From positions 1 through 64,000 of IMG/VR virus record IMGVR_UViG_3300023179_000040: a stretch of DNA of 64,000 nucleotides. One strand, given 5' to 3'. A program made the translations under genes and the position numbers. Below are positions 25,998 to 38,063 of the stretch, piece after piece (the first letter of the stretch is position 1; every line of letters starts with the position of its first letter). A model generated the notes under the pieces. That model was not told the origin of the DNA. It saw only the letters and a list, made by a program, of their open reading frames with translations, and made no database searches. Origin of the DNA: a virus.

Positions 25998-28900
25998 ATG
26001 GCATCAGGCTTTAATCTCACAGCCCAGTTAAATCTTAGAGGACCGTCAAATATTGGCGTGATCGTAGCCGATATTCGTAGACAGATAGGATCTATTAATG
26101 CTGCTGTTAATCTCAGATTAGATCCGAATGCTATAAGAAATACAACTCAACTTAATGCTTCTTTACAAGGTCTTAATAGAACCCTTAATCAAGTTACATC
26201 ATCAGCTTCTAATGCAGCTGCCGCTATTGGTAGATTATCTAATGCCTTGGGTAGAGTTAATGCTGGTGGAGTAGCTCAAAATTTAGGACGAGTAGCTGCA
26301 TCTACTAATACTATTGGTCAGTCAATGAGAGATGTTAGCACCCGCATAGTTGCTGCATCATCAGAAATGCAAGAGTTCGGTAAGCAATCAGGATTGGCCG
26401 TAAGACGCTTTGCAGCATTTAGTACTGTTACTGGCGTTATATATGGTTTAACTAATGCTATTAATCAAGGAGTTAAAGCTTATATAGATTATGATAGACA
26501 ATTAGTTAAATTACAACAAGTAACTGGACAATCTGCGGCCGGTTTAAAATCTCTTGAAGATACTATCACTCAATTAGCTGTTGGTTTAGGTGTTGGGTCT
26601 GCTGAATTAACACAAATTTCTAGCACATTAGCACAAGCTGGTTTGAGTGCCAAAGATACTGAAAGAGCACTTAAGGCATTAGCATTAAGTTCCTTAGCAC
26701 CATCGTTCGATAGCATGAACGAAACCGTAGAAGGCGCTATTGCGTTGATGAGACAGTTTGGTATCGGAGCCAATCAGCTAGAAAAAGCTCTTGGTTCTGT
26801 TAACTCTGTTGCTGCTAAGTTTGCTGTTGAAGCTAGCGACTTAATTACAGCTATTCAACGTACCGGTGGTGTGTTCGCCACAGCAAGTAGAGGAGTAAGC
26901 GAAGGAACAGATGCTTTAAATGAGTTCTTAGCAGTCTTTACTAGTGTTAGAGCTACTACTCGTGAAAGCGCAGAGACTATTGCTACTGGCTTGAGAACTA
27001 TTTTTACTAGAATTCAAAGAGAAGATACAATAAATGCTCTTAAATCATACGGAGTAAATCTTACAGATTTAGATGGTAAATTCGTCGGAGCATATAATGC
27101 TGTAGAATTATTAAGTAAAGGATTATCTAAACTAGATCCAAGAGATCTTAAGTTCTCTCGTATTGTTGAAGAGCTTGGCGGTTTTAGACAAATCGGTAAA
27201 GTTATTCCATTAATTCAGCAGTTCGCCACTGCTCAAGAAGCTCTTAAGGTTGCACAATCAGGTCAGGGATCATTAGCTGCCGATGCTGCTAAGGCTCAAG
27301 AGTCATTAGCTATTCAAACAGCTAAAGTTAAAGAAGAATTTTTATCGCTCTTTAGAGAAATTGGTAAAAGTGATAGTTTTCAGACCTTGGTGAAAGGAGC
27401 ATTATCTGTTACTAGTGCTTTAATTAAAACCGCAGATAGTGTCAAAGGAGTATTGCCAATATTAGGAGTTATGTTGGCATTTAAAGGAGCATCCGCTATT
27501 ACTCAATTTGGTTCTGGATTTGTTCAAGGTATTCGCGGTTCTGGTGGAGCCAGAGGATTAGGTCAGAGACTAGGTGGTGGTTCTGGTATGTCTAACGGAG
27601 GTCCGGTAAGATACTATGCTTCTGGTGGTCTTGTTCCTGGCTCCGGAGACACAGACTCAGTTTCTGCTAGACTAACTCCCGGCGAATTCGTTATAAATAA
27701 GAGAGCAGTTAAAGCTATAGGTACCAGTAATCTGAATAGAATTAATAGATATGCTGTGGGAGGACCAGTACCAATCAGACAATTGGCTAGTTCTACCAAG
27801 GGTGGATCAACAATTAAAAAATATAGAGATACTAATTCTGATATTATACAAGACATAGATCTTGTCTCTTCTGCTATAGATCGTAAAAATTTACCATTAA
27901 CAGATGCTGATAAAAAATATCTTTTTAGAGCAACGTTAGCGGATAAGGGATCGGGTAAAAGATTTAAGGGTAGTATTGCCTATTTAAATAAGAATGTTTG
28001 GGGCGATGCTTATGAAGAAATCATAGCTAAAAAGCTAGGCTCTGGTTGGCAAAAAACATCATCTATAAAAGAAATGGGTCCGTCTTATCCATTAGATCTA
28101 TATAATTCTAGTACTGGTGAATTAGCAGAAGTTAAATTTACAGATAAGCCAGTTAGTATAGCACATATTCTTAGTAAAAAATTAAGACAAAAACTTATTT
28201 CTTCTGGTAGAACTAAAAAAACAGGATGGGGATTTACTCAATCTGTTGGCGAAAATGTTAATCTTGGCAGGGCTACTGTTTATGAGCCTAGCGAAAATGA
28301 AAAAAGAGAGTTTGTGAACGCATATAAAACAGGAGCTTTGGATGCTAAGGCTTCTACAGGAGGTATCATTCGTAAGTTTGCGGATGCTGGACTAGTCAGC
28401 GCCACCGGAGGTAAACCAGTCTCGGCATCACAAATTATTAGGCTCCTAGGAGCAGAAGGAGCTGCGAAGGCTGGTAATATCAGCGCTAATGAAGTTAACA
28501 GAATCTTGCGTATCCGCAAGCCCGATGCTATAGAAGCAATGATTCAAAATAATATCCTAAAAGAATATCAAAAAACAATAAATAGAAGAGAGGGCGCTCA
28601 AAAAGCAAGAGGAACTAGATTAACATCTCAAGGCTTATTGTTTGGTGTCGCTGGTATGTTTGGATCCGCATTTCCGCCTGTTATAAAGACTATAGAATCT
28701 AATTTATTAAAATCTCCAGTTAGTGTTAAAATTATGAGCGGTATTATGAGTGAGAGTACCGCTCAATCTGTAGATGAAATGTTTGCTAGTTCTCTTAACA
28801 AGACAGCAAATAAAGCAGCTAAAAAAATTATGGTTGCTGATATTCTTGGTAAGGTTGGTTTGGGTAGAGAATTAAATTTAGATTTTGATAGAACACTAGC

Positions 28901-31900
28901 TTTTGGGGCAGATAATATTCTGTCCGATCCTAAAAAGCCAAAATTTGTTGAATTTTCAGATAGAAATAAAGTATCAGGAGCACTTAAAACAGCCAAATTA
29001 AGTTTACTAGGTAGAGAACTAGCCAGTTTAGTATCTAGTAAACCAGAATTATTAAATAATCTAAGACTTATTACCGCCAGACCAGCATCAACATTAGATC
29101 TAATTCAGTCTTGGTTGTCTAGCAAAGGATTACCAATACCACTAAGTCAGTTTAAGGGTCTTGGTGGTCCAAGCGTTTCTGGTTCTCAGATAGCCAAACT
29201 CAAAGCTGCTTTATTAAGTCCAGGGTCATTATTTGTTGATGATGATGTTAGAAATATTAAAGCCGCTCGTAGAAGATCCAAAGAAGGCATAGAATCATAT
29301 CGCTATAGCAACCGCAGAAACACAACTAATATAAATGGAGATGCAACCGCACAAGGTATTCTTTTTGAAAAAGTAATTGAAAAGCTTGGTGGGCCTTTAG
29401 CCCTTAAAGGTGGCGGATTAGATTTTCCAGAAGGACTAAAAGGTGCAGCTAAGTATTTTGGTATTCCGGCAAATATACCAACAGATGCAAAGCGTACCAT
29501 TAATGGACCATCAACAGTAGAAGATAATATTATTACCTATCTAAGAACCAAGGGCTACGCTACTGGAGGAGAGGCAAACAAGAATATTCTAGCCATGCTC
29601 ACTCCGGGCGAACTAGTATTATCTCCGGATCTCGCATCGTCTATTGGAAGATCTAAATTAGATAAACTAAATCATGCAGAAAAGTTTATAAAGAAAGCTA
29701 GTGGTGGAACTATTAGTATGGTTCCAGGTTCTGGAGACGGAGACTCTTACGGTCCTGTACCACTAGAGGTTGGTAGTTATGTTATTAGAAAGAAAGCGGC
29801 TCAAGCTCTAGGATTCAATACCGGAGGATATGTTCAAGGTTTTGCTGTTGGAGGACCAACACTATCAGCAAGACCAGCAAATCCAACAGTAGATAATGTG
29901 AGAATAGATACAAATGTAGTATCCCTGCTACAAAATGTGGGCAAAGCCTTAACTGATCTTGGATTATCGTCTAATAGTGCCGCATTATTACTTAAGAAAA
30001 ATGCAGATATAAACTATAGAGAAGCTCAAAGAGCGCTAGAAGCAGACGTTAGACGTATGAGAGTTGCTGGAGCATCAGCTCAAGAAATTTTAGATGTTGA
30101 AGCTAGATTGGCTAATGTTAGAAATTCAGCAGCTAGTAATATTGCCGCAAGACAAACATTATCAAATACATCAGGACAACAATTACAAGAAATACAGTTT
30201 AGGGCACAAAGAGAACGAGAAGATATGATTAATCGCAGAAGATCTGTTGCTAGAGCAAGAGGTCGAAGCGAAGATGAGATTAATGCTGCTATCGCAGATC
30301 CTAATTATCAACGATTTGTTAATAATAGAAGTTTTGAAACTGCAACGACCGCAGTTACAGGAGTTAGTGCTCGTACACTAAGATCACAAAATATTAGTGG
30401 GTCAGATATTGAACAAGTAGTTCGTCAGTCTATGATGGATCGCAGAACATTGGCTCAAATGGATAGGCAATACGTATCTCAAAGAAGACAGGAAATTTTT
30501 AATCAATTAAGAGCAGAAGCTGGAGTTACAGCTACTAAATCTCAAATTAGAGTATTAGCTTCTCAGGCTTTAACTATGGCCCAACAAGAAGTTAAAGAGA
30601 GAAGACAAATACTAAACCAACAGGCCGCTGCTGCTGGAGTAATAGGTCCTGGTAGAGGTGGAATATTAGGTACAGGTATTGGTATAGGTCCATGGTCAAA
30701 TGATCCTCGACAAGGAGCTATTTATAGAACATTATCTCCGATGATGGGAGGAATTACTCCACGTAATATTATGGGCGGTATCAGAAATTTTGGTTCATCA
30801 TTAGGTACTGGAAATGCTGGATTTTTCTTAAGTATGGGGATAGGCGCGGTTGCTGGACAATCTGAAAATATTTCATCATTGATGGGTGGCGATAAAAAAG
30901 CTCAAAGAGGACGAGCCGCAGCTATAGAAGGAGGCTTAAGCACCTTTGCTTCTGGACTATCATTAGCTAGTGGTGCCGCAATGATTCCTGTTGTTGGACC
31001 ATTTGTTGCCGCTGCAACTGTTGCTGGTAGTGCTTTGTTGGCGTTTAAGGACGCCACGAATGCTTCTGCAAAAGCTCTTAAAGAATATGAACAAGAGCAA
31101 AGAACCAAAAATATAGATGATATTAATGATAAAATTAATAGAGCATCTGAAACATTTCAAAAAACAGGTAATTCTAACGAGTTAATTAAACTTTCACAGC
31201 AAGCTAATGGGGCTATTAATGAAGATCTTCTTATTAAAACTAGAAATGCTGCTGAGGAAAAGGCTAAATCTCAGAGTACCTTTAGTTGGTTGATGGGAGA
31301 AAATAAACCAATTCTATCTAGTGAAGACTATAAATCTCTAGGTAAGGATGCTGCTAAACAAGCAGAGCAGTCAGCTCAGTCTGCTCGTATGATTATAGAA
31401 TCTAGAATACAAGGAGGAGCAGATCTTAATCAATACGGATTAACAGAAGAATTTGCTAAATTATCAAATATTATTGCTCAGGCCGATCCCACCTTTACAA
31501 CTTTTATAGCATCAACAAAGAATATGACTGATGCTGAAAGAGCACAAGCCATATCGGTAAAATTAGCTGAGAGAAGATTATTATTAATGAGAGATGCAGG
31601 ATTAGTAGCTACAAATAGTACTGTTATGGCATCCAAGGCGATGGAAGAAGCGAATAAAGCAGGTAGAAAACTAGCTCAAACTTTTGAAAGCATGAACAGG
31701 TCATTTTCTCAAGCTTTGGGCAGAACACAGTATGAGGCCGGTGTTAATCTGAATAATAGAGAATCTAGATCAGAAGACTTGACTGGCTCTTCTAGAATTA
31801 TGATATCATCGTCTAGAGATCTCAATATTGCTGAAAATCCATTAGCATATGATTCTGCTACTAGGGCTCAAACATATGGCCGAGTAGCTAGAGAAATTGT

Positions 31901-34900
31901 TAGACCAGATATGGCTGGATTAGATCTCGCAGAAAGAAATCGAAGAGCTAATGAAGCTAATCTAATAAGTCAAACATTAAATTTTGATACTGTTGGTGTT
32001 CGTAATCGTACTGTAGGCGCTGTTAATGCTATAAATAATGGGGGAACTACTTTTGAACAAGCTTCAGCAGCATCAAGGACCAAACTAGAACAAGAATTAG
32101 CCAATGCACCAAGCTCTATTAGAGATCAGATACTTAAAGAATTTGATGATATTATTAATAATATAGCTAAGGGAGATAGTAAAGATAAATCTAATCAAGA
32201 TAAAATTAAAATATTAGGCGAAACTCTACAGAATGATTTAGGTAAAAGTGCTATAGAGGCCAAGGACAACCTGAACCAGATGGCTCTTGAATTTTTGAAA
32301 TTTAAGGACAGTACTCTAAAACAATTTGTTGATTCTCTTAATAAGGTTGTTCAAGAACAATTAAAAGCCGCTGAAGCTATTAGACAGGCTAGATCTATAG
32401 TCATTGAATCACGGGTGGCCTTGAGAGAACTTATTAGCGGTGGATCGATAGGACTAGGAGAAAGAGCACAAATTATTAATAATAATGTAGGATCTCTAAC
32501 AGGAGGCATAACTGATCCTACTCGCATAAGACAAAATATTCAGAATCTTAGCGCAAGAAAATCAGAACTAAATAATAAATTAAATGATCCTTCTTTATCT
32601 AAGGAAGAAAGAGATAAAGCCATAGTAGAATTAGAAGGCTTAACACTATCTCTTAATAAAAATAGAACAGCATTAGATGAGTTAGCTAATAGTACAGAAT
32701 TAGCTAGTGCTGCTATGTCTCAGCTACAAAATTTACAGAAGATGCAAGCTGATAGACTACAGAATATTGATCAAATACTCACATCAACACCGCAAGAACT
32801 TAGAAAATTTAATGAGTCACTCATTAGAGTTCAACAAAGAGCAATGGGTATCGATCCTGGGCCATCACGGGAAGCTCGCAAAGCATATAACAGAACACTA
32901 AGACAAACCGGTGGAAATGTTCAAGCTGCTATGATGGCCGGTCAGGCTCAGATGGCAGAGGATAGAGGTACTGATTTAAGAAATATGGAACAGTATCGTA
33001 GTACTTGGATTTTGAATCAAATGAATGAGGCTCGTGCTCAGGGCATAGAATTAAGTCAAGAAGAAGCTAATAGAAGATTCAATGCTAATGCCGCTAATGT
33101 TAGAGGCCAAATGGCTAATGAGTCTGGTGCTGCTAATATGTATGGCCCAGGAATCAATGAAGGCATAATGGCTAGTGTTGATCCTATGAGAGACCCAGCT
33201 TTTGCCGCCACTGCTAGAGTGGCCATGGCAGCAAGTGATAATCAAGCCAGAGCCAAAGAACAGCAAGCTATTTTATTAACAACAAATGCAACAGAGGAAT
33301 TTGGTAATGCATTAAAATTACTAACAGATCAAATGCTGTTAATTAGTCAAAGATTCTCACTAATGCAACAACAGCAAGGAGCAGATTTAGGATTAGCTCC
33401 GCCTCCTGGACAAATGAGACCACCGGTCATAGTACCCCCACTGTTTCCTGCACAACGAAATCAGCCACAAAGAAAGGCTTTGGGTGGTTTGATTTATGCT
33501 GCTAATGGTCAATTTGTAGACTTTAAGCCTATGGGGACTGATACCATACCAGCAATGTTAACTCCAGGAGAATTTGTTGTTAATAGAACTGCTACCGAAA
33601 AACACTTGCCTCTATTAACCGCTATTAATGGAGGTAACGAAGTTAGGGTTGATGGTATGAGTAGCGGAGGATTAGTTTATTTGGCTAGAGGTGGTAGGCC
33701 AGGAATGAATATGATGACCAATGGAGGCAATAGGGTCGATGGGCGTGTTCCCAAGAGATTGGCCGTGCGTAGAGATTATGCTACTTTTTCTAGATTAGAT
33801 GCAGATAGTAGCGGTTATTTAACATCAACAGAGATTGATGACGAGATCTTATCAAGATTAGATGGTAATAATGACGGTAGACTCAGTACTGTAGAATTTT
33901 TTGGAGCATTACCAAATACTAGAGATAGAAGATTTTTAGGTAGAGTAGACTGGCGTAAACCTACAATTATTACTAGAGCACTAGAAGCACAAGATATTAG
34001 TTATAGAGTATTTTCTGAAAATAGATATGCTAAGTTTGCAGATAAATACAGAGACCCTAGCACCATAGAACAGGGATTGATGGTCGATCCTAGAAGACCA
34101 AAAGATCCTGATGCTGTTATTCCAAAGATCGATATACCATCATTAGTGCCTAATGATCCTAGATCCCGTATGACAATGGACATGCAGAGATCTGTAAATG
34201 GTAATCTTATTCCTATTCCCAAAACACTTAAAGAAAAAGACCCTAAATCTTTACGCAATTCATTTTATAGATTAGATGTTAATGAAGATGGCGTATTGTC
34301 TGGTACAGAATTAACCTCGTATCGTGATTTAGATACTGACTTAAATCAGCAAATTACAGAAGATGAGTGGCTAGGTGTGGGTTTTGATCCTTATGATTCA
34401 TTACAAAGGGAAAGATTTAATATTACTAATCCTTTTGGTAAAGGAATGGATGCTCGTAGAAGAGCTTTAGAGTCCGGAATGGCAGCATACGAAAGAAGCG
34501 TTGCGACCGGCGAGCCAATACGCGATAGAAAAGGAAATATTGTTTTTGACGGTACTGCTGAAAGCTTAAAGAATAAAAGAGAAGAGTTAGCAACTATAAG
34601 AGCAGCTAGAGGAGGAAAGTCTCAAACACAATTAATTCGTGAACAAAAATATAATGATCGCTTAGTTAATCAAAGACTAGGATCTTCTGGATATGCTGTT
34701 GGCAAGGCTCAAAAGCAGATAGATACAGAAAGAGAAATGTTTGAGGAAGAAAGAAAAAAAATCAGCAATGCCAATCCATTAATGACGGAAGATGAGGTGA
34801 TACAAGCTACAACGGATTCTCTTAACAAAGGCGGATATACTATTGGAGCGGATGTTAATTGGTGGAAAAATGAAAGAGGAATCACTGCTACCGCCGGTCA

Positions 34901-37900
34901 ATATGACGAAACTAGAACCTTAGAAGCTATAAAAAATAGCGATGCTCTAGCTACTAATAGCGATCCAACCGGAGCAAAGGCAAGAGCATCAATAGATGCC
35001 TATGCCGCATCACAAGGAGCCAGAGCACAAGCAGATAGAGTAAGTAGAGGTATGGGTGATGAACCTATTAGCCCTGATGCTGCTGTAGTTGGTACGCAAG
35101 GACCGGTATCGTCTTTAAACAGAGCGATAGATAATGCTGAAGTTGGTAGAGCAGTAGATACTAGAGTTAGAAGAGAAAAACAAGATCAATTAGCAGCTGA
35201 TATTCAAGCTGATGTTGCCAGATCCGCAGCTATGGACAAGAGAGATAAAGAGCTTGGTATATACACCGGAGATATCAATAGAGATATCTATGTTTCTGGT
35301 ATGGGCGATGTATCTTATCAGCCTGGAATGGGATCAAAAATATCTATCGAAGAACAAAAACAGAGAAGACGTGAAAAGGTTATTAAAGACAGATTAACAT
35401 TCACAGATAAAACTGGTAAATATTCACAATCTGGTACTATAGATAGTATTGATGCTAAGACCGGCACTGTGCGTATTGCTAAAATTGATCCAAACACCGG
35501 GGCACCAGTTACGAAAAAAGATAAAGATGGGATAGAAAATCAAGTATATACAACTATACCAATAGATCAATTAGATACAAAATCTCAAGCTAAAATCAAT
35601 AAAGCTCTAGAAAAAGATAGAGCACAGCAAGCAGCAGTGGCTAATGCTACGCTAGATAAAGCCGTTCAAGGCATTTCGATATCTGCTGAGGTGGATTTAT
35701 CATTACCATCTGAATCAACTAAAGCCAAAGCAGATGCCCTAGCTAAAGAAACTATGGAGAGAGCTAATGCTGATCAGGCTAGGTTTGATCAAAGCATTTT
35801 ACCAACATCTAAGCCATCTATCGTTATTGATCCTATTACTCGTCAGCCTAAAACTATTGATGGACAGAATATAGATGTTAAAGCTATAAGGCAAAGATTA
35901 GAACAAGATCGTCAAGATTTACAAGCCCAAATAGAAGATTGGGTTAAGAATGGACAATTTGGCGAAGGTGTGGCTCGTACACAAGATATGAATCTTACTC
36001 AAGCTAAGATTGATAGGTCACTACAAGAATTAGCAGATTTAGAAAATGCAAAATACGAATTTGATACCGCAAGAGAGGAAAAGAATCTTGCTACACAAAA
36101 AAGATATGAAGAGCTAAAGAAAAAGAGTGAAACTGGTAGAGGTCTAGCGTCAGTTAAGGAAGCAGATGAATTTGCTAGACTATCTATTGAGAGAGGAGTT
36201 GCTCCGGGAGAAATTCCTGGAGGAAGAACTGTTGTTGTTGAAAGAGCCATGAGAAGCGAAGCTTTTGCGACATCAGATAAAACTGATGCTTTTGGTCAAC
36301 CTGTTGCTGTTGGAAATATGGAAAAACAATCAACAGAGCAGTATACTAAAGATCTTGTTGAGGAGAAGAGAACTTCACAATATAGTAAATTAACATCGGA
36401 AATTTCTAATAATGCCAGTCAGTCTGTAGAAAATTTAACAGGTTCTCGTTATTTAGGTAATACCGCCGGTTTTGTAACCACACTAGGTTTAGGTATTGTA
36501 TCACCAGAAAATGTTGTAACGCAGGTTGCTACTGGAGGGTTAGGACTTATCCCAGCATTAGGTGTTGATGTGGCTAGTGCCGGAGGAGGTGCTCTAGGTG
36601 CTTATGGTGCAGGAGATTCTCAAGGAGTAATAGAAGCTGCGTTTCAAGGAGCCACTACATTAGGTATGACGGGGGCTTTTAGAGCTTTAGGCGCAGCACT
36701 ACCGTATATTCCTGCTGTTAAGATGCCTAATTTAAGTTTCCCTTATAAGTCATTTGGAAATGGCGTACAATCTTTATTAGATACCGCAGATGAGTCTCTT
36801 ATTAGGGGCATATATGGTGTTGATCCTAAAGTATATCGTAGAGCAGAAAATATAGCTGGTATCAGGGCGGATATACAGGCCGCAGCTGAAGAAGAAGCCT
36901 TCGTCAATTCTGTCACTGATTTTATGACTGGTAAAAATAGTCCAGTTGTTAGAGCGATAAAAGAGGCAGATGCAGACTTTAGATCTGCTCCAGACAGAGC
37001 AGCACAACAAAGAAAAGCATTAGATATAAAAAAACAAGAAGCAACAGCACGACTAGAGCAACAAAAAATAGATGCCCAAAAAGCTGAACAAGAATTTGTA
37101 GATAGTCAAATTACGGATATTCGTGATCGGGTTATAAGAGATGTAGAAGCTGCTAAACAAAATGGAGCCACAGCATCCGGCATAAAAGCAATTGAGTATA
37201 GAGGTAAGGTTGAATTAGAGGAAAAAGGATTATTGCCTAGAGCTGAAGAAAGACTTAATCTTGCTCAAGAAACAAGACGCAAAGCAGAAGCTGATCAAGC
37301 TATTAAAGAAATGCAAGACTCATTTAATACTACTAGCGCACCAATACCATCGAAACCATCACCTAAAAAGCCAAAGAAACTTGCTACTGGAGGTATTGTT
37401 TATGCTGCTAATGGAGCATTAATCAATGCCCAACAAAAGGGTTCAGACACAGTACCAGCCATGCTTACTCCGGGAGAATTTGTCGTTAACAGACAAGCAA
37501 CTCAACAACATTTACCAGTTCTACAAGCTATTAATAAAGGATACTATAGCAGAGGCGGAATGGTACAATATTTAGCTGATGGCGGTATTGTTGCTCCTAA
37601 GTACTATATGTTTGGTGGATTAAGTAGCGGTATGGGCTTCTTAGCTTCATCTTTCAACAAGGGTAAGGACGGAGCATTAAGTGACGTCGATCCTGCTATA
37701 ATAGCAGAATTCGGCAGGGCTGTACAGTCCCTTAAAGATACTTTTGGTTCACTAGAAAACTTTAAAGATGTTGGCGAGAATATTAAACAGGCCATGAGCA
37801 CAATGAGTCAAAATGTAGCAATGTTTGGTGAGTCTATCAACTCCATACCTCAAGAAGTTGTACACAACATGAGCGCAACAGTTATGCAGCACGTTATGGG

Positions 37901-38063
37901 CTTGGACGGAGCAGAACAAAAATACGCTAAACAATTTGATAGTAAAATGGAGCAAGTGGCACTTAATACAGTAGCCACAGCTCGTCATAGAGATGCTAAA
38001 TTACACGAAGAAGACCCAGCAACAGTTGGTCAGATTATTGGTCATCAAGCAGGATTGGTATAG
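25998..38063 (+). CDS. giant tape measure protein with embedded enzyme-like domains (4021 aa)
   Basis: Residues 120-450 match the phage tail tape measure core (KAYIDYDRQLVKLQQVTGQS, then ETIATGLRTIFTRIQ). Four LTPGE(F/L)V motifs stand at residues 559, 1201, 2521 and 3823. Embedded segments: a PD-(D/E)XK-like block (Asp700, Glu711-x-Lys713, helix with AYEEII before it); a HAD-like block (DFDRTL at 962, LITAR with Thr1026, VDDD at 1081); two pairs of EF-hand loops (start near 2601, 2622, 2760, 2779). Hydrophobic stretches lie near 1650-1690 and 3490-3540. It sets tail length and is ejected into the host. By the usual 1.5 A per residue the tail could reach about 0.6 micrometre, less for inserted domains. 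Confidence 0.9.
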   Translation: MASGFNLTAQLNLRGPSNIGVIVADIRRQIGSINAAVNLRLDPNAIRNTTQLNASLQGLNRTLNQVTSSASNAAAAIGRLSNALGRVNAGGVAQNLGRVAASTNTIGQSMRDVSTRIVAASSEMQEFGKQSGLAVRRFAAFSTVTGVIYGLTNAINQGVKAYIDYDRQLVKLQQVTGQSAAGLKSLEDTITQLAVGLGVGSAELTQISSTLAQAGLSAKDTERALKALALSSLAPSFDSMNETVEGAIALMRQFGIGANQLEKALGSVNSVAAKFAVEASDLITAIQRTGGVFATASRGVSEGTDALNEFLAVFTSVRATTRESAETIATGLRTIFTRIQREDTINALKSYGVNLTDLDGKFVGAYNAVELLSKGLSKLDPRDLKFSRIVEELGGFRQIGKVIPLIQQFATAQEALKVAQSGQGSLAADAAKAQESLAIQTAKVKEEFLSLFREIGKSDSFQTLVKGALSVTSALIKTADSVKGVLPILGVMLAFKGASAITQFGSGFVQGIRGSGGARGLGQRLGGGSGMSNGGPVRYYASGGLVPGSGDTDSVSARLTPGEFVINKRAVKAIGTSNLNRINRYAVGGPVPIRQLASSTKGGSTIKKYRDTNSDIIQDIDLVSSAIDRKNLPLTDADKKYLFRATLADKGSGKRFKGSIAYLNKNVWGDAYEEIIAKKLGSGWQKTSSIKEMGPSYPLDLYNSSTGELAEVKFTDKPVSIAHILSKKLRQKLISSGRTKKTGWGFTQSVGENVNLGRATVYEPSENEKREFVNAYKTGALDAKASTGGIIRKFADAGLVSATGGKPVSASQIIRLLGAEGAAKAGNISANEVNRILRIRKPDAIEAMIQNNILKEYQKTINRREGAQKARGTRLTSQGLLFGVAGMFGSAFPPVIKTIESNLLKSPVSVKIMSGIMSESTAQSVDEMFASSLNKTANKAAKKIMVADILGKVGLGRELNLDFDRTLAFGADNILSDPKKPKFVEFSDRNKVSGALKTAKLSLLGRELASLVSSKPELLNNLRLITARPASTLDLIQSWLSSKGLPIPLSQFKGLGGPSVSGSQIAKLKAALLSPGSLFVDDDVRNIKAARRRSKEGIESYRYSNRRNTTNINGDATAQGILFEKVIEKLGGPLALKGGGLDFPEGLKGAAKYFGIPANIPTDAKRTINGPSTVEDNIITYLRTKGYATGGEANKNILAMLTPGELVLSPDLASSIGRSKLDKLNHAEKFIKKASGGTISMVPGSGDGDSYGPVPLEVGSYVIRKKAAQALGFNTGGYVQGFAVGGPTLSARPANPTVDNVRIDTNVVSLLQNVGKALTDLGLSSNSAALLLKKNADINYREAQRALEADVRRMRVAGASAQEILDVEARLANVRNSAASNIAARQTLSNTSGQQLQEIQFRAQREREDMINRRRSVARARGRSEDEINAAIADPNYQRFVNNRSFETATTAVTGVSARTLRSQNISGSDIEQVVRQSMMDRRTLAQMDRQYVSQRRQEIFNQLRAEAGVTATKSQIRVLASQALTMAQQEVKERRQILNQQAAAAGVIGPGRGGILGTGIGIGPWSNDPRQGAIYRTLSPMMGGITPRNIMGGIRNFGSSLGTGNAGFFLSMGIGAVAGQSENISSLMGGDKKAQRGRAAAIEGGLSTFASGLSLASGAAMIPVVGPFVAAATVAGSALLAFKDATNASAKALKEYEQEQRTKNIDDINDKINRASETFQKTGNSNELIKLSQQANGAINEDLLIKTRNAAEEKAKSQSTFSWLMGENKPILSSEDYKSLGKDAAKQAEQSAQSARMIIESRIQGGADLNQYGLTEEFAKLSNIIAQADPTFTTFIASTKNMTDAERAQAISVKLAERRLLLMRDAGLVATNSTVMASKAMEEANKAGRKLAQTFESMNRSFSQALGRTQYEAGVNLNNRESRSEDLTGSSRIMISSSRDLNIAENPLAYDSATRAQTYGRVAREIVRPDMAGLDLAERNRRANEANLISQTLNFDTVGVRNRTVGAVNAINNGGTTFEQASAASRTKLEQELANAPSSIRDQILKEFDDIINNIAKGDSKDKSNQDKIKILGETLQNDLGKSAIEAKDNLNQMALEFLKFKDSTLKQFVDSLNKVVQEQLKAAEAIRQARSIVIESRVALRELISGGSIGLGERAQIINNNVGSLTGGITDPTRIRQNIQNLSARKSELNNKLNDPSLSKEERDKAIVELEGLTLSLNKNRTALDELANSTELASAAMSQLQNLQKMQADRLQNIDQILTSTPQELRKFNESLIRVQQRAMGIDPGPSREARKAYNRTLRQTGGNVQAAMMAGQAQMAEDRGTDLRNMEQYRSTWILNQMNEARAQGIELSQEEANRRFNANAANVRGQMANESGAANMYGPGINEGIMASVDPMRDPAFAATARVAMAASDNQARAKEQQAILLTTNATEEFGNALKLLTDQMLLISQRFSLMQQQQGADLGLAPPPGQMRPPVIVPPLFPAQRNQPQRKALGGLIYAANGQFVDFKPMGTDTIPAMLTPGEFVVNRTATEKHLPLLTAINGGNEVRVDGMSSGGLVYLARGGRPGMNMMTNGGNRVDGRVPKRLAVRRDYATFSRLDADSSGYLTSTEIDDEILSRLDGNNDGRLSTVEFFGALPNTRDRRFLGRVDWRKPTIITRALEAQDISYRVFSENRYAKFADKYRDPSTIEQGLMVDPRRPKDPDAVIPKIDIPSLVPNDPRSRMTMDMQRSVNGNLIPIPKTLKEKDPKSLRNSFYRLDVNEDGVLSGTELTSYRDLDTDLNQQITEDEWLGVGFDPYDSLQRERFNITNPFGKGMDARRRALESGMAAYERSVATGEPIRDRKGNIVFDGTAESLKNKREELATIRAARGGKSQTQLIREQKYNDRLVNQRLGSSGYAVGKAQKQIDTEREMFEEERKKISNANPLMTEDEVIQATTDSLNKGGYTIGADVNWWKNERGITATAGQYDETRTLEAIKNSDALATNSDPTGAKARASIDAYAASQGARAQADRVSRGMGDEPISPDAAVVGTQGPVSSLNRAIDNAEVGRAVDTRVRREKQDQLAADIQADVARSAAMDKRDKELGIYTGDINRDIYVSGMGDVSYQPGMGSKISIEEQKQRRREKVIKDRLTFTDKTGKYSQSGTIDSIDAKTGTVRIAKIDPNTGAPVTKKDKDGIENQVYTTIPIDQLDTKSQAKINKALEKDRAQQAAVANATLDKAVQGISISAEVDLSLPSESTKAKADALAKETMERANADQARFDQSILPTSKPSIVIDPITRQPKTIDGQNIDVKAIRQRLEQDRQDLQAQIEDWVKNGQFGEGVARTQDMNLTQAKIDRSLQELADLENAKYEFDTAREEKNLATQKRYEELKKKSETGRGLASVKEADEFARLSIERGVAPGEIPGGRTVVVERAMRSEAFATSDKTDAFGQPVAVGNMEKQSTEQYTKDLVEEKRTSQYSKLTSEISNNASQSVENLTGSRYLGNTAGFVTTLGLGIVSPENVVTQVATGGLGLIPALGVDVASAGGGALGAYGAGDSQGVIEAAFQGATTLGMTGAFRALGAALPYIPAVKMPNLSFPYKSFGNGVQSLLDTADESLIRGIYGVDPKVYRRAENIAGIRADIQAAAEEEAFVNSVTDFMTGKNSPVVRAIKEADADFRSAPDRAAQQRKALDIKKQEATARLEQQKIDAQKAEQEFVDSQITDIRDRVIRDVEAAKQNGATASGIKAIEYRGKVELEEKGLLPRAEERLNLAQETRRKAEADQAIKEMQDSFNTTSAPIPSKPSPKKPKKLATGGIVYAANGALINAQQKGSDTVPAMLTPGEFVVNRQATQQHLPVLQAINKGYYSRGGMVQYLADGGIVAPKYYMFGGLSSGMGFLASSFNKGKDGALSDVDPAIIAEFGRAVQSLKDTFGSLENFKDVGENIKQAMSTMSQNVAMFGESINSIPQEVVHNMSATVMQHVMGLDGAEQKYAKQFDSKMEQVALNTVATARHRDAKLHEEDPATVGQIIGHQAGLV

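What the first reader, a model, noticed from the sequence alone, without database searches (positions are those of the whole stretch)
28860..29330. HAD phosphatase-like block inside the tape measure protein
DFDRTL (962), LITARPAS with Thr1026 and LFVDDDVRNI (1081) are in the order and spacing of HAD motifs I, II and IV. A HAD enzyme in a tail-length ruler is unexpected and could act on host nucleotides, RNA or DNA ends after ejection.
Basis: partly seen in the sequence, partly recalled or inferred. Interest (0 to 1): 0.75.

Follow-up and report, generated by a model that had tools for sequence, protein, structure and literature searches.

The report
Phosphatase-fold domain in phage tail ruler
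The protein that sets the tail length of this uncultured phage carries a built-in phosphatase-type (HAD) enzyme domain next to two nuclease-like domains, and related phages swap such domains in and out of the same protein, which suggests the tail ruler doubles as a carrier that delivers enzymes into the bacterium with the phage DNA.

Summary
Residues ~930-1140 of a 4021-aa tape measure protein (TMP; window 25998-38063) hold all HAD motifs: D962/D964/T966, T1026, K1069 (the lysine whose absence would have refuted it) and D1081/D1082. All but T1026 (T or S) are invariant in a 30-sequence alignment. AlphaFold2 gives a confident HAD fold; Foldseek's best hits are HAD phosphatases and phage polynucleotide phosphatases. 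Divergent members match PHROG polynucleotide-kinase and deoxyribonucleotidase families and an NCBI HAD family.

It is followed by a short PD-(D/E)XK-like element and preceded, in this TMP, by a second PD-(D/E)XK-like domain. In 57 of 58 IMG/VR loci with the HAD it sits inside a TMP of one uncultured lineage (up to 7737 aa), at residue ~880-2450. Many TMPs with the same N-terminus lack it, or carry a second HAD-like type, SNase, ADP-ribosyltransferase or P-loop domains.

Best reading: virion-delivered, nucleic-acid-related cargo, like 'polyvalent proteins' but built into the tail ruler. The fold and an intact active site are well supported. Phosphatase activity, substrate, nuclease activity and delivery to the cytoplasm are inferred. 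I found no published TMP with a HAD domain.

The parts
25998..38063 (+). Tape measure protein ORF, 4021 aa
   Evidence: Pfam PhageMin_Tail 3.7e-21, PHROG tape measure 5.7e-27
25998..27730 (+). Conserved N-terminal TMP core (residues 1-577), shared by at least 132 viral loci
27672..27692 (+). LTPGEFV punctuation motif 1 (res 559-565), before the cargo block
27990..28382 (+). N-terminal PD-(D/E)XK-like domain, res 665-795; E673, D700, E711, K713 invariant in 10 of 10
   Evidence: no family match
28353..28784 (+). Conserved linker before the HAD (res 786-929)
   Evidence: collinear in relatives with the HAD
28785..29417 (+). HAD domain (res 930-1140): D962, D964, T966 (motif I), T1026 (II), K1069 (III), D1081/D1082 (IV)
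29346..29567 (+). C-terminal PD-(D/E)XK-like element following the HAD (res ~1117-1190): E1124, D1142, D1163, K1165
   Evidence: D1142 and K1165 30/30, D/E at 1163 30/30, E at 1124 25/30; model 2 shows helix-strand-helix-strand-helix at modest confidence
29598..29618 (+). LTPGELV motif 2 (res 1201-1207), after the cargo block
30954..31049 (+). Hydrophobic stretch (res 1653-1684), the main candidate membrane segment; C-terminal to the HAD
   Evidence: hydropathy only
33558..33578 (+). LTPGEFV motif 3
37464..37484 (+). LTPGEFV motif 4

Best explanation
The block is a HAD-superfamily phosphoesterase domain with a complete catalytic set, carried as cargo inside the tape measure protein. It forms one cassette with a short PD-(D/E)XK-like nuclease element (right after it in this family, with one order exception) and, in this phage, a second PD-(D/E)XK-like domain upstream. 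Expected chemistry of the fold: D962 forms an aspartyl-phosphate, D964 is the general acid/base, T1026 and K1069 hold the phosphate, D1081/D1082 bind Mg2+. Proposed working: the TMP travels in the tail tube, leaves the virion with or ahead of the DNA, and the cassette refolds in the host, where nuclease and phosphatase act on nucleic acids or nucleotides (for example trimming ends, or removing 3'/5' phosphates left by cleavage) to protect the incoming genome, attack host or rival nucleic acid, or blunt a nucleotide-based defence. Shown: sequence motifs, conservation, predicted fold, modular exchange, residence in the TMP. Inferred: phosphatase and nuclease activity, substrate, delivery and site of action.
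For: Catalytic residues invariant across 30 aligned sequences down to ~30% identity. HAD fold at pLDDT 83.5 with Foldseek hits to phosphoserine phosphatase, AphA and Pnkp1, and to phage polynucleotide phosphatases in BFVD. Members match phrog_415 polynucleotide kinase (3.4e-5), phrog_2643 deoxyribonucleotidase (7.8e-5), TIGR01509 HAD-IA (6e-4). Purifying selection. 57 of 58 HAD-bearing loci sit in ORFs that also hold the TMP core. All 36 HAD-bearing TMPs examined also hold the PD-(D/E)XK-like element. Presence/absence needs at least 14 changes on the TMP-core tree, at least 8 forced by well-supported branches. Other TMPs of the lineage carry SNase, ADPrib_exo_Tox, ART-PolyVal, AAA_16. No internal ribosome-binding start before the HAD, so it is made as part of the TMP. 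The one non-TMP case, L192, is a 3013-aa ORF on a 40.9-kb viral contig, possibly another large virion protein.
Against: No family profile matches the window's own copy. The C-terminal PD-(D/E)XK-like element is short, modestly modelled, matched no known nuclease, and in many TMPs without the HAD its lysine is lost (PTDATR), so it may be structural in those. No host, no virion proteomics, no proof that TMP residues 600-1200 reach the cytoplasm. Rows without HAD were mostly seen only for the first ~3800 residues, so some absences may be unseen presences.
Confidence: 0.6

Rival explanations
1. The HAD acts in the envelope (periplasm) during entry, like the periplasmic class B acid phosphatase AphA, on envelope phosphates or periplasmic nucleotides, and never enters the cytoplasm.
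For: AphA is among the best Foldseek hits. The HAD lies N-terminal to the candidate membrane segment at 1653-1684, and published TMPs work at the inner membrane (PMC13190303).
Against: Neighbouring PD-(D/E)XK-like, SNase and ART cargo fit cytoplasmic nucleic-acid or protein targets better.
Confidence: 0.13
2. The domain works in the producing cell or in the virion (TMP folding, processing, tail assembly) and is not delivered.
For: A TMP is synthesised and chaperoned in the producing cell; nothing here excludes activity then (inference, no tool result bears on it).
Against: Relatives with the same core lack the HAD and carry other domains in its place, so assembly does not need it.
Confidence: 0.1
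3. Inert spacer: a dead HAD retained only for length.
For: TMP length sets tail length, so any insert adds length. A second HAD-like type (B) in 12 TMPs lacks motif IV and may be dead.
Against: In the type found here the catalytic residues are invariant (T/S at motif II) at ~30-40% identity and dN/dS is low; a spacer would not keep an active site.
Confidence: 0.07
4. Selfish cassette: HAD plus PD-(D/E)XK element is an in-frame mobile element that spreads between TMP genes through its nuclease.
For: Patchy distribution, nuclease-like neighbour, varied insertion distance (residues ~880-2450).
Against: No splicing (HINT) signature noticed in the TMP; it stays in frame in the translated protein; always after the TMP core; a phosphatase has no known role in homing.
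Confidence: 0.06

Closest known systems
HAD superfamily phosphatases, especially polynucleotide 3'-phosphatase (PNKP/T4 Pnk type) and 5'(3')-deoxyribonucleotidases
   Same: Motifs I-IV in order, predicted fold, weak profile matches of divergent members
   Different: Embedded in a tape measure protein, no kinase partner found, TARP rather than TGR in motif II, window copy matches no family profile
Polyvalent proteins (Iyer et al. 2017, PMC5512222): multidomain proteins injected with phage or conjugative DNA
   Same: Many exchangeable enzymatic domains (nuclease, ART, P-loop) in one huge polypeptide; one TMP of the lineage weakly matches ART-PolyVal
   Different: Carrier is the tail tape measure protein; that paper mentions neither tape measure proteins nor HAD domains in its main text
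TMPs with cell-wall-degrading domains (for example mycobacteriophage TM4 peptidoglycan-hydrolase motif; own knowledge, and the reference seen)
   Same: Enzymatic domain inside a TMP
   Different: Target there is peptidoglycan; here the chemistry points to phosphate esters and nucleic acids
TMP-derived contractile-injection effectors (Sle1, Tme; PMC13277306)
   Same: TMP-related architecture used as an ejected effector
   Different: Those are bacterial injection-system cargo, Sle1 with a helical, membrane-associated C-terminus; no nuclease mentioned in that paper

Membership tests
HAD superfamily | Motif I DxDx[TV] after a hydrophobic strand | tested here: met
   LDFDRTL, D962/D964/T966 invariant 30/30
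HAD superfamily | Motif II Ser/Thr at end of strand 2 | tested here: met
   T1026 (T 22, S 8 of 30), at end of modelled strand 98-102
HAD superfamily | Motif III Lys/Arg | tested here: met
   K1069 invariant 30/30, in helix before motif IV strand
HAD superfamily | Motif IV acidic pair at end of its strand | tested here: met
   D1081, D1082 invariant 30/30, at the end of strand 154-157 of model 2
HAD superfamily | Rossmannoid HAD fold | tested here: met
   AF2 pLDDT 83.5; the 10 PDB hits with E<=0.001 are all HAD phosphatases; prediction, not experiment
HAD superfamily | Mg2+-dependent phosphoryl transfer | not testable with these tools
   needs protein
Polynucleotide 3'-phosphatase (PNKP type) | Profile membership | tested here: inconclusive
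   6 of 30 members match phrog_415, best 3.4e-5, best match over part of the domain only; window copy does not match
Polynucleotide 3'-phosphatase (PNKP type) | Fused or adjacent 5' kinase | tested here: not met
   No AAA_33 kinase in the 106.6-kb record; the record may be incomplete
PD-(D/E)XK nuclease superfamily (domain at 665-795) | E...D...(D/E)xK in order | tested here: met
   E673, D700, E711, K713 invariant 10/10
PD-(D/E)XK nuclease superfamily (domain at 665-795) | Core fold alpha-beta-beta-beta-alpha-beta | not tested
PD-(D/E)XK nuclease superfamily (element at 1117-1190) | D...(D/E)xK and helix E | tested here: met
   D1142, D/E1163, K1165 30/30; E1124 25/30
PD-(D/E)XK nuclease superfamily (element at 1117-1190) | Core fold | tested here: inconclusive
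   Only a minimal helix/strand core modelled, pLDDT ~43-81; K lost in many HAD-less TMPs
Polyvalent proteins | Several enzymatic domains in one protein injected with DNA | tested here: inconclusive
   Several domains present; injection not testable
Tape measure protein | TMP core domain in a long ORF of a phage record | tested here: met

The most novel reading that the evidence does not exclude
A whole lineage of uncultured phages uses the tape measure protein as a 'polymorphic' effector carrier: between LTPGE-type punctuation motifs it swaps nucleic-acid-processing enzymes (HAD phosphatase, PD-(D/E)XK, SNase, ADP-ribosyltransferase, P-loop) that are injected before any phage gene is expressed.
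Probability: 0.4. Interest if true: 0.82.

Novelty: new variant of a known kind. Interest (0 to 1): 0.62.

Why it matters
Tape measure proteins are usually treated as rulers with at most a cell-wall enzyme. A conserved phosphatase-fold plus nuclease-like cassette inside them, exchanged between relatives, would mean that the first protein to enter the host can be an exchangeable effector. It makes a clear test possible: do tape measure proteins deliver folded, active enzymes into the cytoplasm? It also offers a new place to look for early counter-defence factors, since they would act before any phage transcription.

Tried and rejected
Chance motif match: rejected by conservation, fold and shuffles. 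Host-derived or widespread bacterial HAD: the pattern-based scan of 84,980 bacterial/archaeal genomes found no relative, and tblastn of the window copy in INPHARED phages and PLSDB plasmids found none, nor did the divergent copies tried in phages. Separate gene product from an internal start: no Shine-Dalgarno near residues 850-965. Named curated HAD family for the window copy: none reached. PNKP-type kinase in the genome: none found with AAA_33. Acid_PPase (PF12689) in the genome: none. Foldseek of the HAD-plus-element model gave mainly HAD enzymes among the best hits and no nuclease, so the nuclease reading of the C-terminal element rests on motifs. The first version of my motif pattern missed the real site because of an over-strict flank and was corrected. 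Literature search for HAD in tape measure proteins found nothing relevant.

Full report
What is there. The window is part of a 106,612-bp uncultured virus record. ORF 25998-38063 encodes a 4021-aa tape measure protein by Pfam and PHROG matches over its first ~530 residues. Residues 930-1140 hold the reported block.

Is it a HAD domain? The window copy matches no curated family. Relatives do the work. IMG/VR scans gave 5, then 14 loci. A tape-measure-core scan gave 132 loci, of which the best 80 were kept; 26 of the 69 distinct ORFs among them carry this HAD. AlphaFold2 on the small alignment gives pLDDT 83.5 with the expected order of strands and helices. Foldseek finds phosphoserine phosphatase (3e-5), AphA and, lower down, Pnkp1 in the PDB, and phage polynucleotide phosphatases in BFVD. 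A second model on 30 sequences agrees. Divergent members match phrog_415 polynucleotide kinase, phrog_2643 deoxyribonucleotidase and TIGR01509 HAD-IA. dN/dS is 0.09-0.35. I conclude that this is a HAD domain with an intact active site; activity itself is not shown. The modelled fold has only a small insertion after motif I, so the active site is probably open, as in HAD enzymes that act on large substrates (inference from general knowledge of the superfamily).

What surrounds it. Right after the HAD comes a conserved stretch, G-x3-E ... DFPxGL ... IPT(D/E)xKRT. Its D1142, D/E1163 and K1165 are kept in 30 of 30 and E1124 in 25 of 30. This is the order of a PD-(D/E)XK nuclease, but the element is short and its model is only modest. 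All 36 HAD-bearing TMPs compared also have the element (in L054 it lies upstream of the HAD instead of downstream); 28 TMPs have it without this HAD, and in many of those the lysine is gone. Upstream, residues 665-795 form a clearer PD-(D/E)XK pattern, with E673, D700, E711 and K713 invariant in 10 of 10 sequences. LTPGE-type motifs at 559 and 1201 lie just outside this block. No ribosome-binding start precedes the HAD, so it is translated as part of the ruler.

Exchange. The HAD lies at residue ~880-2450 in different relatives. On a tree of the TMP core its presence or absence needs at least 14 changes, 8 of them forced by well-supported branches; rows were mostly cut at ~3800 aa, so some absences may be false. 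Twelve TMPs carry a second HAD-like type with motif I, motif II and the lysine but no motif IV pair. It aligns with the first type over motif I-II (hhalign probability 88.8%, E 2.5e-6), and no distinct TMP ORF had both. Other TMPs carry SNase, ADPrib_exo_Tox, ART-PolyVal or AAA_16 matches. A wider scan returned 66 loci, 58 of them with the HAD by my reading of the table; in 57 the TMP core is in the same ORF (the set overlaps earlier scans and includes near-copies). The exception, L192, is a 3013-aa ORF on a 40.9-kb contig with a HAD of the same motif order. No relative of the window copy was found in cultured phages, plasmids or bacterial genomes at the sensitivity of these tools.

How it most likely works. 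The simplest account is that the ruler carries enzymes into the host. Tape measure proteins leave the virion at infection and act at the inner membrane (PMC13190303, PMC13277306). A phosphatase next to nuclease-like domains suggests processing of nucleic-acid ends or nucleotides. Steps shown: motifs, conservation, predicted fold, modular exchange. Steps inferred: activity, substrate, refolding after passage through the tail tube, compartment. The HAD lies N-terminal to the only strong hydrophobic stretch (1653-1684), and which side of the membrane it reaches is unknown.

Comparison with what is known. The concept resembles polyvalent proteins (PMC5512222), but that work does not mention tape measure proteins or HAD domains in its main text. 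TMP-like effectors of contractile injection systems exist (PMC13277306), without these enzymes. I found no paper describing a HAD domain in a tape measure protein among 5.39 million open papers; most subscription papers were not searched. I rate it a new variant of a known kind.

Noticed in passing
L052, L074, L082, L099, L100, L104-L106, L117, L118, L123, L128 (type B region, coordinates): A second HAD-like domain (D-x-DRT[LV]xRT ... ISKS ... GG[SDN]K) without a motif IV acidic pair, in 12 TMP ORFs that lack the type described here; possibly an inactive cousin.
   Followed up: partly
window 33783-33911 and 34248-34358: EF-hand-like calcium-binding motifs in the TMP (residues ~2596-2638 and 2751-2787), just below Pfam's cut-offs.
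   Followed up: no
L064 and L130 after the HAD; L056; L107; L064 and L132: Other cargo in related TMPs: ADP-ribosyltransferase-like segments (L056 by Pfam, L064/L130 by eye), a P-loop (L107), staphylococcal-nuclease-like domains (L064 by Pfam, L132 by eye).
   Followed up: partly
L192:626-9667: 3013-aa ORF on a 40.9-kb viral contig with a HAD domain of the same motif order and a possible peptidase-like HEVFH segment; no TMP core. Looks like a large virion or polyvalent protein of a different phage type.
   Followed up: partly
L049:11335-13290 (-) and L049:13740-16520 (-), same viral record: PhoH-like and ribonucleotide reductase ORFs each look interrupted by an intein (C-terminal 'THN' junctions); read by eye only.
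   Followed up: no
record positions ~77385-81738 (L048:17386-19008 and L049:74-1939, both -): DNA polymerase III alpha appears as two ORFs on either side of a DnaQ-like exonuclease ORF (L048:19001-19696); read by eye only.
   Followed up: no
G007 and G014: Tape measure ORFs of 7737 aa, unusually long, with 7 LTPGEFV motifs.
   Followed up: no
L131, L132: The only two TMP-core relatives in bacterial genome contigs lie in short contigs binned as Alphaproteobacteria and Chitinophagia; weak host hints only.
   Followed up: no
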